Origin: a virus
DNA length: 64,000 nucleotides
Direction: 5' to 3' (one strand)
IMG/VR virus record: IMGVR_UViG_3300017992_000021
Coordinates: 1 to 64,000 of that record
Shown: positions 975 through 23,288 of the stretch, one piece after another
How positions within the stretch are numbered: the first letter of the stretch is position 1
Layout: the number at the start of each line of letters is the position of its first letter
Program-made: the position numbers and the translations under genes
The notes under the pieces: model-generated
Seen by the model: the letters and a program-made list of their open reading frames with translations, nothing else
What the model was told of the DNA's origin: nothing
Databases searched by the model: none

Positions 975-1637
975 CTAGCAAGGGTTATCGATATAACGCT
1001 CATTGAGCGATCCGTTGTCGCTCCACCGTTTTACCTCCGCAGCGTCTGGCCATTCATCTTGCATGAAGAACGCCATCAGCTTCGGAGATTTCTCCAGTGT
1101 GGTCTTAATGTTTTTGAGCGACACGTGCCTGTACATCAGATGACCAAGATTGAAGCCCAACACGTAAACACCGAACATCGGCTCAACGTATTCCTCACCG
1201 ACGCCGTTCTTGAACACGCGAGTCATCACGCGCCCGTACTGTGTTTCCTCACGTTTGTCATCAGTGTAGAATTCAATCAACACATTCGGCTGCACATGCA
1301 TGGTAGCCGCATAAAGGCAGCTATAATCAAACCAAAGGTACTCTTTACCGTCCTCCGAGGTATAGACCTCCCACAATGTGTCGTAGTTCTTACCGCTGGA
1401 ATGCGGTACGAAATACCACTCGCCGTCATCGCAGCCGAGGTAACCTTTAACCCATTCCCCCTTGCAAGAAATTTTCGCCGGTACACTGAAAGCCGTATCT
1501 GGCGCACCAGTCGTATGAGCCGTAAACAACCGCTCACTACCCGGCTTGTCCCGCACGAGCGGGACGTTCGTGACTTTCTGCAAAGTACCCCACGCGCCTA
1601 TCCGCGTGACTACCTGCTCGGATTTATTACTCGTCAT
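975..1637 (-). CDS. Hypothetical protein next to the radical SAM gene
   Basis: A 220-residue protein I do not recognise. The ATG at 1637 is preceded by GAAAGG at good spacing and overlaps the 3' end of the radical SAM gene by 11 bases, so the two are translationally coupled. Composition suggests a soluble beta-rich protein with many aromatic residues (GEWYF, EYLWFDYS) and four scattered cysteines, without a clear metal motif. Because of the coupling it could be a partner or substrate carrier of the radical SAM enzyme, but this is inference from position only. Confidence 0.75.
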   Translation of the reverse strand: MTSNKSEQVVTRIGAWGTLQKVTNVPLVRDKPGSERLFTAHTTGAPDTAFSVPAKISCKGEWVKGYLGCDDGEWYFVPHSSGKNYDTLWEVYTSEDGKEYLWFDYSCLYAATMHVQPNVLIEFYTDDKREETQYGRVMTRVFKNGVGEEYVEPMFGVYVLGFNLGHLMYRHVSLKNIKTTLEKSPKLMAFFMQDEWPDAAEVKRWSDNGSLNERYIDNPC

Positions 1638-2325
1638 CACCAAACCTTTCAATCAACGCTTCCCGCATGTCCTCGGAGGCTTTGCAGAGGATGTTATCCT
1701 CATCCCGCTGCGACTTGTACGACCAGTCACAACCGAGAATCACGTTCCCCTCACAATTAAGGTACACGTCGCCCTCTTCAACACGACCATCGCAGTATTC
1801 AAACGACTCAGGTTCTAATTTCCGATAATCGAAGTGCCCCTCCATACGACCTTCCGCGACCAGATTCTCGGGATACGTAGCCTCCTCGGGGAACCTACGT
1901 TTAAAGAACGCCAAACCATCAAGCAACGTTGTATCGTAAGCACTGTCATCGCTGTGATAGCCGTCATTAGAAACTACTACCTGCGTGACTTCGTTATCAT
2001 CGCAATATGCAAACCAACGCAGGCACGCTATAACGAACTCTTCTGAAATTGCTTTACCGTTGGTAGCAATATAAAAACCACCAACACCGATTTCAAAATC
2101 TTTGCACAATTTCAACGCCTGCTCCATAATCGTCACATTCAACGAGGGCTCGCCGCCGGTAAACGTGAGGTTGGAGATGTAACGCACTTGCGTAAGTAGC
2201 GCACGTAGATCACGGTATTCCAGATCCATATTTTCGGCATCGCCGCGCAGACAATGGCTACACACCATGTTGCAACGTCGAGTAACTTCAATAACAAGGT
2301 TGTATATTTCCAGTTTCTCTTTCAT
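1627..2325 (-). CDS. Radical SAM domain protein
   Basis: A 232-residue enzyme with the canonical iron-sulfur/SAM motif CxxxCxxC at C18, C22 and C25 (RRCNMVCSHC) and the SAM-binding GGEP motif at residues 57 to 60 (FTGGEPSL). Such enzymes cleave S-adenosylmethionine reductively to start radical chemistry in the cytosol. Four more cysteines in the last quarter (C178, C191, C199, C214; YLNCEGNVILGCDWSY) look like a SPASM or twitch-type auxiliary cluster region, which in known families often acts on peptides or proteins. It starts by an ATGA overlap with the gene before it and overlaps the gene after it. The substrate is unknown. It does not resemble the tRNA-modification enzyme QueE, whose cluster loop is spaced differently. 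Confidence 0.85.
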   Translation of the reverse strand: MKEKLEIYNLVIEVTRRCNMVCSHCLRGDAENMDLEYRDLRALLTQVRYISNLTFTGGEPSLNVTIMEQALKLCKDFEIGVGGFYIATNGKAISEEFVIACLRWFAYCDDNEVTQVVVSNDGYHSDDSAYDTTLLDGLAFFKRRFPEEATYPENLVAEGRMEGHFDYRKLEPESFEYCDGRVEEGDVYLNCEGNVILGCDWSYKSQRDEDNILCKASEDMREALIERFGDDE

Positions 2326-3294: not shown

Positions 3295-3326
3295 CGAAAG
3301 AAGGGCACCACTGACAAATGGTGCCC
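3295..3326 (-). terminator. Candidate intrinsic terminator
   Basis: Perfect 8-bp stem (GGGCACCA / TGGTGCCC) with an 8-base loop, followed on the minus strand by the pyrimidine-rich TTCTTTCG. It lies between the tiny gene at 3345 to 3455 and the gene at 2948. The U-tract is interrupted, so termination may be partial. Confidence 0.45.
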
Positions 3327-3344
3327 AACCATGACCGTCATCGC

Positions 3345-3455
3345 CTAGTATTTCAAGACGCCCCACCAGTGACGCTTATCCGTTTGATTTCGCGTCCTCA
3401 CTTTTAATATCGACGTGACCCAACTCGCTTGGATAACGTCTCGGGAGTTTTTCAT
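3345..3455 (-). CDS. Possible 36-residue peptide
   Basis: ATG at 3455 is preceded by GAGGCGG 7 bases upstream and opens a 36-codon frame (MKNSRDVIQASW start, HWWGVLKY end). The same frame is open a further 30 codons upstream without a start codon, and that segment also looks protein-like, so the gene might be longer with a rare start, or a decayed longer gene. Function is unknown. Confidence 0.4.
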   Translation of the reverse strand: MKNSRDVIQASWVTSILKVRTRNQTDKRHWWGVLKY

Positions 3456-4009
3456 TTCACCGCCTCGGGCGTACTCCGCACCCTGCACGGTATAAGCTGC
3501 GATTCCTGCCGCCTTACAGGCCAGCTTTTTGCACCAGCTAACTAATTATCATCACGACAATTCGCCGCTAGAGAAATCCGCTTTAAGCAATTTGCAGCGT
3601 CCACACACCTACCTAACCGCGCATCTATCACTAGCATGCGGGATACGGGATTCCCGGCACTAAGCCGAAACAATACGCTTCCGCTTGGCGTTTGTTTAAA
3701 GCGAATTTCTGATTTCAAATAACACACCACAAGCCACCTACCGACACACCTGATAACTCCTAAGCGTACCGTCAGATATGTTTTCGGCTTTTCGCAGCCT
3801 AATTAATGCACCGCATTGAAGCCTAAATTAGTCCACAGGCGAACATCGCTACGCGTAATGGTGGCTACGCGTTAGCGTTGAATTACCTACAGGTAATTGC
3901 GCATTAAATAGTTGTCAATTAACGGGCGACTATTGAAAGCCGCGTACACTGTTGAAAGCGCACAAGGGCACACCCTCAATTGAGGGTGTGCGGCTTCTAC
4001 GTTTTCGCG
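3456..4009. other. Gene-poor region with inverted repeats
   Basis: No convincing gene is seen over about 550 bases. The stretch has an 8-bp inverted repeat AATTACCT-AC-AGGTAATT (3881 to 3898), an imperfect 9-bp inverted repeat with GCTACGCG/CGCGTTAGC cores (3847 to 3877), and a TTGACA hexamer on the minus strand (3913 to 3918). The TTGACA lies 17 bases from TACCTG inside the first repeat, so it could be a repressible promoter for the leftward genes, although the -10 match is poor. A 62-codon frame at 3542 to 3730 is unconvincing. Confidence 0.5.
3969..3990. repeat. 22-bp perfect palindrome
   Basis: CACACCCTC-AATT-GAGGGTGTG is perfectly self-complementary. It lies 20 bases beyond the stop of the Lys/Ala-rich gene on the minus strand. 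It could be a hairpin that protects or ends that transcript, though no U-tract follows on either strand, or a protein-binding site. Confidence 0.6.
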
Positions 4010-4459
4010 TTACTCCACCAATTGAGCCAGCAATTCAGAAACCTTGTCTAGTATTTCCTTTTTGCTCGACTTGGCGGCTTTTGACGGCTTGGCGGCTTTT
4101 GCCTTGCGCTGCTTGGCGGCTTTTGTTGTCGCCTTTGCTTTGCGAGGCTGGAAAGCATTAAGAGTTTTCCGCGTTGAGGCGGCTTTCATCTTGAACGTTC
4201 CCGCTACCGTTTTGGCGGCTTTACGGAAATCCGCAATCAACGTTTTATCGGACTTGGCGGCTTCACCACGTGCCCGCTTGTCGATTCGGCAATCCGCGAA
4301 GAAAGCCAAACGCTTTACGTTTGAACGTTTTTCTGTATACCGAAAACCGTTTACCGACATATTGCGCTTGATTTGCGCTTGGCGGTTTTCGCTTTCGATA
4401 TTATCGAAGAAAACCCAAACATAAGCACGTTCCGTCAGCATCGTGCATTTATTCGACAT
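4010..4459 (-). CDS. Lys/Ala-rich histone-H1-like tail protein
   Basis: A 149-residue protein starting at ATG 4459 (AGAAAGG upstream). The first 70 residues form a small basic domain (YVWVFFDNIESENRQ, FRYTEKRS) that I do not recognise. From about residue 80 the protein is almost entirely Lys, Ala, Thr and Ser with repeated KAAK and KAKAAK units, like the tail of histone H1 and bacterial H1-like proteins. The last 15 residues return to a helical EILDKVSELLAQLVE. Such tails bind DNA non-specifically through charge. Its position beside the repeat array at 4745 suggests DNA packaging or a replication/origin role, which is inference. Confidence 0.75.
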   Translation of the reverse strand: MSNKCTMLTERAYVWVFFDNIESENRQAQIKRNMSVNGFRYTEKRSNVKRLAFFADCRIDKRARGEAAKSDKTLIADFRKAAKTVAGTFKMKAASTRKTLNAFQPRKAKATTKAAKQRKAKAAKPSKAAKSSKKEILDKVSELLAQLVE

Positions 4460-4617
4460 TAGTAAACCTTTCTTTACTATTGCCCGCACGTGCCTTGCTT
4501 GCACAAGACGCGTGCAAGCGAAACGATAAGCTAAGATAAATGACAAATAACTTTCAACCACGCATAACTATAACTTGGTACTAACACCAAGCAAGCAAAA
4601 AACATAATTTATTTCTA

Positions 4618-4639
4618 ATATTGTACAGAAATACAGTAT
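4618..4639. promoter_or_regulatory. 22-bp dyad site, left copy
   Basis: ATATTGTA-CAGAAA-TACAGTAT, an imperfect dyad with 8-base arms. It matches the site at 4853 to 4874 at 19 of 22 positions as a direct repeat. This is the form expected of a dimeric repressor or initiator site. Confidence 0.6.
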
Positions 4640-4744
4640 AAAATTACTCCAAAAAATCAGCTAAAAACCCCTATTTTCTAGGGTTTTCGGGGTATTTTTG
4701 GGTATTTTTTAACGGTATTTTGTAACGCAAAAACGCATAAAATA

Positions 4745-4844
4745 TTTCTGCAAATTCGCTGCAAATCCTCTGCAAAAATCAACGCGAATCCGCTGCAAAT
4801 TCTCTGCAAATGTTCTGCAAATTCTCTGCAGACGTTTTGCAGAA
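4745..4844. repeat. Nine tandem 11-bp repeats (iteron-like)
   Basis: Units of consensus NNNCTGCAAAT follow each other at 11-bp steps from 4745 to 4844. Five copies have CTGCAAAT exactly, one has CTGCAAAA, the last two drift to CTGCAGAC and TTGCAGAA, and the fourth unit is degenerate and one base longer. Eleven bases is one helical turn, so a bound protein would sit on one DNA face. The step is not a multiple of three, so the array is not protein-coding repeat. It is most like iterons of an origin or a partition site. Confidence 0.75.
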
Positions 4845-4852
4845 AACCACGA

Positions 4853-4874
4853 ATACTGTACAAAAATACAATAT
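4853..4874. promoter_or_regulatory. 22-bp dyad site, right copy
   Basis: ATACTGTA-CAAAAA-TACAATAT, the partner of the site at 4618 to 4639. The pair brackets the 11-bp repeat array, 235 bp apart. It lies 56 bases beyond the primase stop. Confidence 0.6.
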
Positions 4875-4929
4875 TTGAAGGCGCCAGAAAATACGCCCTT
4901 AAATGCCGCCAAGGAAATGGGTATTGTTA

Positions 4930-8909: not shown

Positions 8910-9245
8910 ATGCTGAACGAGCACAACATCGTCGTGACAAAAACCGGACAAGGTTCCGCCCCGGCTGAGATTTGGCAGTGCTCCGAACTGACGTGGTTTG
9001 AGAAGGCGCTCTACAATTGTTTACGTGGTTTTCTAGGACGTGATAAACGCTGCTTTCCAAACAACGCGTCATTAGCTCGCAGACTCGGTGTCGAAAAATG
9101 CAGCATTCGACGCAGCATGATTCAATTAGAAATGAAAGAATTCATTTATCGGGTACCGAGGCAAGATGGAAAATCAGGACGAGAGATTATTTTCCGCTGG
9201 CACGCTATTTTTGATTCTGATGGAGATGCTCATGAGACTCGATAA
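8910..9245 (+). CDS. Winged-helix DNA-binding protein (HTH_36-like)
   Basis: A 111-residue protein whose centre reads like a winged helix-turn-helix: WFEKALYNCLRGFLG, then CFPNNASLARRLGVEK, then SIRRSMIQLEMKEFIYRV. This pattern is known from phage replication initiators and regulators. The ATG at 8910 has only a weak GGA upstream; a GTG at 8847 in frame is an alternative. It is the first rightward gene and sits between the operator repeat at 8680 and the three dyads at 9258 to 9320, so it is the prime candidate to bind one of them as regulator or initiator. Confidence 0.75.
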   Translation: MLNEHNIVVTKTGQGSAPAEIWQCSELTWFEKALYNCLRGFLGRDKRCFPNNASLARRLGVEKCSIRRSMIQLEMKEFIYRVPRQDGKSGREIIFRWHAIFDSDGDAHETR

Positions 9246-9246
9246 G

Positions 9247-9331
9247 GGGGTACAACCTGTTACGCCGTTTGTAACAATCTGTTACGCCACCCGTAACAAC
9301 CTGTTACGCCGTTTGTAACAAATTGTACCCC
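9247..9331. promoter_or_regulatory. Array of three 19-bp dyads inside a 9-bp inverted repeat
   Basis: TGTTAC-N7-GTAACA occurs at 9258 to 9276, 9280 to 9298 and 9302 to 9320, an exact 22-bp period (two helical turns). The array is enclosed by GGGGTACAA (9247 to 9255) and TTGTACCCC (9323 to 9331). It follows the winged-helix gene directly and precedes the helicase operon. It is either a cooperative operator or an initiator-binding origin. Confidence 0.75.
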
Positions 9332-21775: not shown

Positions 21776-22483
21776 ATGAACTACGACCACATCATCGGAA
21801 TAGATCCCGGCTACGGAACGCAAGGTATCGCCATCCTCGACTGCCCTGTGGGGTCTAAACCTCAGTTCAGCACCCTGTGCTCATCGATTACCGAGTCCAA
21901 GGTGTTCCCTTCGCACCACGAACGTTGTGATGCGCAGATCGACATCATCGAAGGCGCACTTGGGACAGCACGACACACCATCTCTAACTCGCTTGCGATA
22001 ATCGAGGAGTGGCGTACCAACCCGAAGGCCCGTAATAACGTCACCTCCTATCAGCGTGGATTCTACGACGCGGTTCTGCGTCTACGCATGCAGAGAATTT
22101 GCAGAACCGTCATCACCGTGAATCCTATCTGGGTAAACCAGTACTCAAATCCCAAAGGGAAATTCACCAAAGGCGCCGAAAACCCGTCTGCAATCGAAAT
22201 TCTCACTTACGTGCAGATGTCCTGCCCGTGGCTGAGCGAATTCGAAGCCGCTGAATGGCTTCTCGAACGCGGTACCGTCATTAAGCTGTCTCTTGAGGGC
22301 TACAAGTACTCTCGCAGTGAAAAAAACAAGATCCACTACGCTGATGCTGCTATCATGGCCGTGATGGGCTACATTGCGGCAGCCGATCCGATGCTTGCAG
22401 CGGGCCGACCGCCGCACCAGAAGGATATCACGCAGAAAATGTGTGCTCTCCTGAAGGCAGCGGCAATCAATGATACTCGATGA
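21776..22483 (+). CDS. RuvC-like Holliday junction resolvase
   Basis: A 235-residue RNase H-fold nuclease. The first catalytic Asp is D10 in IIGIDPGYGTQG; the Glu lies in AIIEEW and the last Asp in HYADAAIMA. It should resolve recombination junctions before packaging, complementing the UvsX/UvsW/SbcCD set. The ATG lies two bases after the previous stop. Confidence 0.85.
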   Translation: MNYDHIIGIDPGYGTQGIAILDCPVGSKPQFSTLCSSITESKVFPSHHERCDAQIDIIEGALGTARHTISNSLAIIEEWRTNPKARNNVTSYQRGFYDAVLRLRMQRICRTVITVNPIWVNQYSNPKGKFTKGAENPSAIEILTYVQMSCPWLSEFEAAEWLLERGTVIKLSLEGYKYSRSEKNKIHYADAAIMAVMGYIAAADPMLAAGRPPHQKDITQKMCALLKAAAINDTR

Positions 22484-23288
22484 CGAAAAAGCGAGTGATA
22501 TAGTCCTCCGCATGAAGTCCCGGTTGCTCAAGGTTCGCAAGAACAAGACCGGAGATAATGCGCCGCACATCATTCAGGCGCTCGAAGCCGAGTTCTACGA
22601 CTGCACCCTCGACTTTCTCAAGGCAGCGGTAAACGAGTTCTGTCCGACCGCCAACGAGCACGATCGTAAGGATCTCGTACAGGATGGTTTCCTCCGGATC
22701 AACCGCAAAATCATGACTTTCCACCCGAAGAAGGGCAAGCTTCACTCGTGGATGACCATGATCGTCAAAAACATGTGCATCGACTGGATGCGTAAGAAGC
22801 GCCCCGACGTCGACGTGCCGGAGCAGCTATTCGACCGCGCTGAGGAGCCCTCGATCGAGCAGGAATTCGATCGAGACACCTTTGGTAGCCTGAAGGCGTT
22901 CTTCCCGTTTTTCGTGTCGGACAAGTTCATTTTCAAGCTGCTGGCGATCGTCGAGAAATACCGCTTCAAGGCCACGATGTCATGCGTGAACGAGGTTACG
23001 GAAGCCCTCAAAGAGATCGACGTCGATTACACTGAGTACGGTAAGCCCACGACACTCGTGCAGGCAGTCATCATCGCCTTACGCGGCATGCTGCTCACAC
23101 CCATGACTGACCGTACGGCGATAGTCATGGCGTATCTGGCCAAGAACCCAGAACTCGACGTATTAAAGGTCTTGACCTACTTTTTCGGTGAAAAGATGAC
23201 CGCTCAAATGGTGCTCTTGATGGGCGGCATGCAGATCCAACTACCCTCACCGCAGCAGTTCTTCAAGCCCGTTGAGCGCACCCGTTAG
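22470..23288 (+). CDS. Sigma-factor-like protein (region 2)
   Basis: A 272-residue protein. Residues 40 to 112 match sigma region 2: DRKDLVQDGFLRINR, then KLHSWMTMIVKNMCIDWMRKK, the order seen in sigma70-family and T4 gp55-type late factors. Region 4 is not clear; the C-terminal half is helical but divergent. It is the last gene of the rightward operon, next to the virion block, so it probably redirects host RNA polymerase to late promoters. Its TAG overlaps the stop of the convergent fibre gene. Confidence 0.78.
   Translation: MILDDEKASDIVLRMKSRLLKVRKNKTGDNAPHIIQALEAEFYDCTLDFLKAAVNEFCPTANEHDRKDLVQDGFLRINRKIMTFHPKKGKLHSWMTMIVKNMCIDWMRKKRPDVDVPEQLFDRAEEPSIEQEFDRDTFGSLKAFFPFFVSDKFIFKLLAIVEKYRFKATMSCVNEVTEALKEIDVDYTEYGKPTTLVQAVIIALRGMLLTPMTDRTAIVMAYLAKNPELDVLKVLTYFFGEKMTAQMVLLMGGMQIQLPSPQQFFKPVERTR

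What the first reader, a model, noticed from the sequence alone, without database searches (positions are those of the whole stretch)
4745..4844. Nine helically phased 11-bp repeats beside the primase gene
Seen: units with core CTGCAAAT recur every 11 bp (starts 4745, 4756, 4767, then after one degenerate 12-bp unit 4790, 4801, 4812, 4823, 4834). Eleven bases is about one turn, so binding sites align on one face. Inference: an iteron-type replication origin or a partition site, next to primase and a histone-like protein. Known iterons are usually longer (17 to 22 bp), so this short tight form is unusual.
Basis: partly seen in the sequence, partly recalled or inferred. Interest (0 to 1): 0.78.

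Follow-up and report, generated by a model that had tools for sequence, protein, structure and literature searches.

The report
Strongly curved phage DNA control element
The repeats are the far end of a roughly 280-base stretch in which short A/T runs recur once per turn of the helix about 25 times, making it by prediction the most bent DNA in this phage genome; a distant relative has the same property at the same place with unrelated letters, so DNA shape, probably for gene control rather than replication, seems to be what is kept.

Summary
In detail: nine 11-bp units lie at the stated coordinates, with 5 exact CTGCAAAT cores and 64% lag-11 identity; the best of 2,000 shuffles at any lag was 49%. 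But the array is only the distal third of a larger feature. From about 4604 to 4880, A/T tracts recur every 11.2 bp in one unbroken phase (22 of 25 tract centres fall within a 3.3-bp slot). This is by far the strongest AA/TT periodicity (36 against a next best of 13) and the strongest predicted curvature (0.50 against 0.18) in the 77-kb phage. The only relative found keeps gene order and has at the same place the strongest periodicity (11.2 bp) and curvature of the 21 kb examined. Its repeat has unrelated sequence and is 33 bp long (3 x 11). Shape and phasing are therefore conserved, not a binding sequence. The element ends about 150 bp upstream of the next gene's start codon in both phages, beside a promoter-like site. 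I favour a curved or wrapping control region for that gene (a basic protein) and a structured noncoding stretch behind it. An origin fits better at 9246-9331, where palindromic 22-bp repeats follow an initiator-like gene and GC skew changes sign. Function is inferred, not shown.

The parts
4604..4880 (.). Phased A/T-tract (curved DNA) element, about 25 helical turns at 11.2 bp; predicted curvature peaks at 4668
   Evidence: 280-bp AA/TT power 36.4 at 11.2 bp, next best in 77 kb 13.3. Curvature index 0.50, genome 99th percentile 0.11, next best 0.18; 0 of 300 shuffles reach it. Tract centres 22 of 25 in one 3.3-bp slot.
4745..4844 (+).
   Evidence: in the same phase as the rest
4619..4638 (-). 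Dyad box TACTGT-N8-ACAATA (LexA-box-like), promoter-proximal copy
   Evidence: One of only two exact matches in the 64-kb window
4854..4873 (+). Second dyad box TACTGT-N8-ACAATA, inverted relative to the first; centres 235 bp apart (21.0 turns of 11.17 bp)
4663..4688 (-). CCCC...GGGG hairpin with T-rich tail, probable terminator of the primase operon; counterpart in the relative at L008 2866-2887
4567..4594 (-). Candidate promoter TTGCTT-16-TATAGT (8 of 12), at the edge of the curved element; counterpart TTTACA-16-TATATT (10 of 12) in the relative at L008 2781-2808
   Evidence: Weak consensus match in this phage; below the scan threshold.
4482..4519 (-). Hairpin in the mRNA leader of the basic-protein gene; a leader hairpin lies at L008 2717-2739 in the relative
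   Evidence: z -3.3 here, -1.2 in the relative
4010..4456 (-). Gene for a basic 148-aa protein (pI 10.5) with Lys/Ala-rich C-terminal part; 30-32% identical homologue in the relative
   Evidence: no PHROG, Pfam or confident fold match
3968..3991 (.). Perfect palindrome GCACACCCTCAATTGAGGGTGTGC just after the stop codon of that gene; the relative has a 44-bp perfect palindrome in the same position
3300..3965 (-). Noncoding, strongly folding stretch, candidate large structured RNA; counterpart L008 1345-2090
   Evidence: no Rfam family
8910..9245 (+). Winged-helix protein with a replication-initiation match (context; better origin candidate)
   Evidence: PHROG_270 E 9.7e-7, Pfam HTH_36 below its cut-off, winged-helix model
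9246..9331 (.). Three palindromic 22-bp-spaced units GTTAC-N7-GTAAC bracketed by GGGGTACAA/TTGTACCCC; best origin candidate
   Evidence: counterpart at L008 7439-7573 with GGTGCC-N5-GGCACC-type units

Best explanation
The array is part of an intrinsically curved DNA element: about 25 consecutive helical turns, each with an A/T tract on the same face. Shown by sequence and calculation: the phasing, the genome-leading predicted curvature, and conservation of phasing and position, but not of sequence, in a relative. Inferred: it is the upstream control region of the minus-strand unit that starts with the basic-protein gene 4010-4456 and runs towards the structured noncoding stretch 3300-3965. DNA leaving the promoter-like site at 4567-4594 would curve back and wrap on a protein core (RNA polymerase plus a host nucleoid protein, or the phage's own basic protein), raising or gating promoter activity. 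The two inverted dyad boxes in the flanks would let a regulator close or stabilise the loop. The CTGCAAAT units matter for their CAAAT tracts in phase more than as a recognition sequence.
For: Phase-coherent 11.2-bp AA/TT signal over the whole intergenic region, strongest in the genome. Highest predicted curvature under two wedge models. Same place, period and rank in the relative with unrelated repeat sequence. The promoter-proximal edge of the element lies about 150 bp from the start codon in both phages (about 148 and 149 bp), while its distance to the primase stop differs (about 50 and 135 bp). A promoter-like site with a 16-bp spacer sits at that edge in both. The same calculation recovers known functional bends: IS5's bent end (0.16), which activates a downstream promoter (PMC2753651), and a peak beside the annotated p4 site of phi29 (0.18). 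Two exact dyad boxes flank the region and occur nowhere else in the window.
Against: No transcription data. The promoter match in this phage is weak (8 of 12) and the scan found no more promoter-like sites than shuffles give. Curvature in the relative is modest against its own shuffles (14 of 300 reach it). Only one relative is known. Some 280 bp is more than RNA polymerase alone contacts. Lambda's origin is also curved in this calculation (0.29), so curvature does not separate promoter from origin. Wedge parameters were entered from memory.
Confidence: 0.45

Rival explanations
1. Nucleation and wrapping site for a phage genome-organising protein: the basic protein 4010 (or another phage protein) binds the phased minor grooves every 11 bp and wraps the DNA, as p6 of phi29 does, autoregulating its own gene and organising the genome.
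For: The adjacent gene encodes a small basic protein (pI 10.5 and 10.0 in the two phages). p6 recognises a bendability pattern, not a sequence; p6 of phage GA-1 binds every 11 bp (PMC10899789). Length and phase coherence exceed what a promoter needs.
Against: No sequence or fold relation of 4010 to a known wrapping protein (model confidence low, pLDDT 60). The phi29 record shows no comparable periodicity. The KEAT-repeat tail in the relative is close to neutral.
Confidence: 0.22
2. Replication origin (or second origin): an initiator binds the 11-bp units and opens the adjacent A+T-rich stretch; the bend helps, as at lambda ori.
For: Repeats next to A+T-rich DNA (4570-4750 is 29% GC) and next to primase and helicase genes. 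Lambda's origin iterons also score as curved in the same calculation.
Against: Unit sequence not conserved. The initiator-like gene carries its own palindromic repeats at 9246-9331, an arrangement repeated in the relative. No GC-skew switch at 4.8 kb. 11-bp units are shorter than known iterons.
Confidence: 0.15
3. Strong gyrase site that wraps DNA, as in phage Mu, here at the end of the replication operon.
For: E. coli gyrase prefers 47-bp arms with 10.75-bp GC periodicity (PMC6379681). The element lies downstream of an operon and its probable terminator.
Against: The Mu site shows neither AA/TT periodicity (3.8) nor predicted curvature (0.01-0.05) in the same test. The gyrase motif is 130 bp with a non-periodic 36-bp centre; this element is about 280 bp with no break in phase.
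Confidence: 0.08
4. Partition (centromere-like) site of a plasmid-like phage.
For: Direct repeats beside a small basic protein gene.
Against: No ParA/ParB or lysogeny gene found among the proteins scanned; not all genes were scanned. Repeat sequence not conserved.
Confidence: 0.04

Closest known systems
Permanent bend in the 3' end of IS5 that activates glpFK in E. coli (PMC2753651)
   Same: In-phase A-tracts upstream of a weak promoter; phasing matters; the same calculation finds its bend.
   Different: IS5 has about 10 A-tracts in 177 bp plus an IHF site and a predicted index of 0.16; here about 25 tracts in 280 bp with index 0.50, and activation is not shown.
pLS20 conjugation switch: two operators separated by a statically bent spacer, closed into a loop (PMC4207663)
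   Same: Operators flank a spacer with periodic A/T tracts in a control region.
   Different: 75-bp spacer and a known repressor there; 235 bp between box centres here and no repressor identified.
Phage phi29 p6 nucleoprotein complex (PMC10899789)
   Same: Recognition of periodic bendability instead of sequence (12 bp; 11 bp in phage GA-1); small abundant phage protein; control of transcription and replication.
   Different: No homologue of p6 found here; phi29 itself shows no such AA/TT periodicity.
Phage lambda origin (iterons within gene O)
   Same: Curved repeat array beside replication genes (curvature 0.29).
   Different: Palindromic 18-bp iterons inside the initiator gene; in this phage the lambda-like arrangement is at 8910-9331, not at 4745.
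Clusters of ~11-bp phased A/T tracts in bacterial genomes (discussed in PMC4132750)
   Same: Same period and tract type.
   Different: Those clusters are about 100 bp and spread along the genome; here there is a single 280-bp cluster, the only one in 77 kb.

Membership tests
Intrinsically curved (phased A-tract) DNA | Several A/T tracts repeated in phase with the helix | tested here: met
   22 of 25 tract centres in one 3.3-bp slot at 11.17 bp; power 36.4
Intrinsically curved (phased A-tract) DNA | Predicted curvature well above background | tested here: met
   0.50 against 99th percentile 0.11; 0 of 300 shuffles
Intrinsically curved (phased A-tract) DNA | Anomalous migration in polyacrylamide gels | not testable with these tools
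   Needs an experiment
Iteron replication origin | Tandem sites bound by an initiator encoded nearby | tested here: inconclusive
   Tandem sites present, but the initiator-like gene is 4 kb away with its own palindromic array; binding not testable
Iteron replication origin | Unit length about 17-22 bp | tested here: not met
   11 bp
Iteron replication origin | Adjacent A+T-rich region | tested here: met
   4570-4750 is 29% GC
Iteron replication origin | Strand-composition switch at the site | tested here: not met
   Skew stays negative through 4-6 kb and reaches zero or positive values only from about 7-9 kb
Strong gyrase site (Mu type) | Two 47-bp arms with ~10.75-bp GC periodicity around a 36-bp centre | tested here: inconclusive
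   SS dinucleotide power 9.5 at 11.4 bp; no position matrix available; the Mu site itself is negative in the AA/TT test
parS-type partition site | ParA/ParB genes in the genome | tested here: inconclusive
   None among the proteins scanned; not all genes scanned
phi29 p6-type nucleoprotein | p6-family protein encoded | tested here: not met
   The 4010 product has no PHROG or Pfam match and no confident fold match; other genes not all tested

The most novel reading that the evidence does not exclude
A conserved phage cassette made of a 25-turn DNA wrapping element, a basic protein and a large structured RNA (about 660-750 nt), in which the element drives or gates very high expression of an RNA-protein particle. 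Neither the RNA nor the protein belongs to a described family in the libraries searched.
Probability: 0.15. Interest if true: 0.78.

Novelty: new variant of a known kind. Interest (0 to 1): 0.52.

Why it matters
Curved DNA is usually seen as a handful of A-tracts. About 25 turns in unbroken phase, kept in position and period by a relative while the letters have changed, is a clean natural case of selection on DNA shape rather than sequence, and it is testable with simple gel, phasing and reporter experiments. It also warns that tandem repeats next to replication genes should not be read as iterons before phasing is checked, and it points to a possible undescribed large phage RNA next door.

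Tried and rejected
Nucleotide search for the replication region, the element and the noncoding stretch in 50,697 phage records: no significant match (a 39-nt Yersinia phage match at E 0.3 was discarded). Scans of viral contigs with primase, DnaB, terminase and helicase gave only one close relative. Genome contigs gave nothing with the terminase alignment or with the conserved noncoding motif. Fold search for the 4010 protein: no confident match. Reading the flanking inverted repeat as a transposon (MITE): set aside, because the terminator-like hairpin with a counterpart in the relative lies inside it. Coding repeat: set aside, since an 11-bp unit shifts frame and the open frames there are not conserved. 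Weak Rfam matches to eukaryotic miRNA and snoRNA families in the noncoding stretch: chance matches to palindromes. Nested inverted repeats around the relative's array: noted, too short to weigh.

Full report
SETTING. The window is the first 64 kb of a 77,059-bp virus record encoding primase, DnaB-type helicase, terminase, major head protein and a sigma-factor-like protein. It has no close relative in 50,697 phage records. Exactly one close relative was found in viral contigs: IMGVR_UViG_3300017991_000075, 99 kb, called G001 here, with terminase 64-66% identical. Gene order around the finding is the same in both: a small gene, a 700-900-bp noncoding stretch, the 4010-type gene, an intergenic region, primase (52% identical) and DnaB (48%), all on the minus strand, then an initiator-like gene (28%) and a helicase (53%) on the plus strand.

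THE OBSERVATION. All nine units are at the stated positions. Lag-11 identity is 0.64, against at most 0.49 at any lag in 2,000 dinucleotide shuffles. The core does not cluster elsewhere.

THE LARGER FEATURE. A scan of AA/TT periodicity over the whole genome showed that the array belongs to a longer element. In 280-bp windows the power is 36.4 at 11.2 bp here; the next best place in 77 kb has 13.3. The stretch left of the array alone gives 26.3 (0 of 1,000 shuffles reach it), the array alone only 8.3 (69 of 1,000). The phase is the same in every 50-bp step from 4615 to 4815. Laid out in lines of 11.17 bp, each turn from 4602 to about 4870 shows an A or T tract in the same column, with one weak unit near 4780. 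Of 25 tract centres, 22 fall between 4.6 and 7.9 modulo 11.17.

CURVATURE. With the wedge parameters of Bolshoy and co-workers (entered from memory) and with a simple AA-wedge model, the curvature index (1 minus end-to-end over contour, 125 bp) peaks at 4668 with 0.50; the genome 99th percentile is 0.11 and the next peak 0.18. None of 300 shuffles reaches it. The bend is concentrated at 4600-4740; over the array itself the index is only about 0.08-0.11. Yardsticks with the same code: lambda origin iterons 0.29, a phi29 peak beside the annotated p4 site 0.18, Mu gyrase site 0.01-0.05, and the bent end of IS5 0.16, reported as one of the largest bends in the E. coli chromosome (PMC2753651). The calculation therefore finds known functional bends, and this element exceeds them.

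THE RELATIVE. The syntenic intergenic region of G001 has no CTGCAAAT array but an exact 33-bp repeat, 3.2 copies, which is 3 x 11 with an A-tract in each 11. Its 280-bp AA/TT power is 23.7 at 11.2 bp, again the strongest of the 21 kb examined (next 12.2), and its curvature is the highest there (0.21 against a 99th percentile of 0.10). Against its own shuffles this curvature is modest (14 of 300). With one relative, conservation of phasing and position without sequence is well supported for the period and moderately for the curvature.

ANATOMY, minus-strand order: primase stop (4930); dyad box 4854-4873; array; A/T-rich curved part; terminator-like hairpin 4688-4663; second dyad box 4638-4619; promoter-like TTGCTT-16-TATAGT 4594-4567; leader hairpin 4519-4482; start codon at 4456. 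In G001: primase stop; 33-bp array; A/T-rich part; hairpin 2887-2866; TTTACA-16-TATATT 2808-2781; leader hairpin 2739-2717; start codon at 2675 (L008 coordinates). The element's promoter-proximal edge is about 150 bp from the start codon in both; its distance to primase differs (about 50 and 135 bp). The two boxes TACTGT-N8-ACAATA are the only exact matches in the window, are inverted to each other, and lie 235 bp apart, 21.0 turns of 11.17 bp. They resemble LexA boxes of gammaproteobacteria (own knowledge; the host is unknown), and they are themselves in phase with the tracts, so they may be partly a by-product of phasing.

MECHANISM. I commit to a curved or wrapping control region for the 4010 unit (0.45). 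Shown: phasing, predicted curvature, conserved layout. Inferred: promoter position, wrapping core, loop closing by a regulator. A protein of the p6 kind that wraps DNA by bendability (0.22) could be the wrapping agent, so the two readings overlap.

WHY NOT THE ORIGIN. The initiator-like gene (8910-9245) is followed at once by three palindromes GTTAC-N7-GTAAC spaced 22 bp and bracketed by GGGGTACAA/TTGTACCCC. In G001 the homologous gene is followed by about five GGTGCC-N5-GGCACC-type palindromes about 22-23 bp apart (with one larger gap), unrelated in sequence. This resembles lambda O and its iterons. GC skew turns from negative to near zero or positive around there in both phages and not at the curved element, although gene direction changes at the same point and explains the skew equally well.

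LIMITS. One relative; no expression data; curvature is modelled, not measured; the host is unknown; the 4010 model has low confidence. Two viral proteins' functions rest on profile matches only.

Noticed in passing
window 3300-3965 (minus strand) and L008 1345-2090: About 660-750 nt without conserved reading frame directly downstream of the 4010 gene, folding well below shuffles in both phages on either strand (z -2.7/-3.0 and -4.6/-5.8). They share the block AGGGTNCRGAGTACGCCCNAGG, enclosed by a stem with three consecutive compensatory pairs. No Rfam family. Candidate new large structured phage RNA in the size range of ROOL and GOLLD; only two sequences known.
   Followed up: partly
window 9246-9331; L008 7439-7573: Palindromic repeats with about 22-23-bp spacing directly after an initiator-like winged-helix gene in both phages, with unrelated unit sequences: likely replication origins in which the initiator and its sites have diverged together.
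   Followed up: partly
window 3968-3991; L008 2094-2137: Perfect palindromes (24 bp and 44 bp) just after the stop codon of the 4010-type gene in both phages.
   Followed up: no
L008 2009-2051 and 2167-2186: In the relative, pieces of the 33-bp repeat (CACAACCCG and its reverse complement) also occur downstream of the 4010-type gene.
   Followed up: no
L008 2287-2351: The relative's 4010-type protein has a KEAT tail encoded by a near-perfect 12-bp tandem repeat (5.4 copies), replacing the Lys/Ala-rich tail of the window protein.
   Followed up: no
window 22470-23288: Phage-encoded protein with a sigma-70 region 2 match (Pfam E 1.9e-13), so promoters of this phage may not all follow the host consensus.
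   Followed up: no
window 1627-2325: Radical SAM protein encoded by the phage (PHROG_1802).
   Followed up: no
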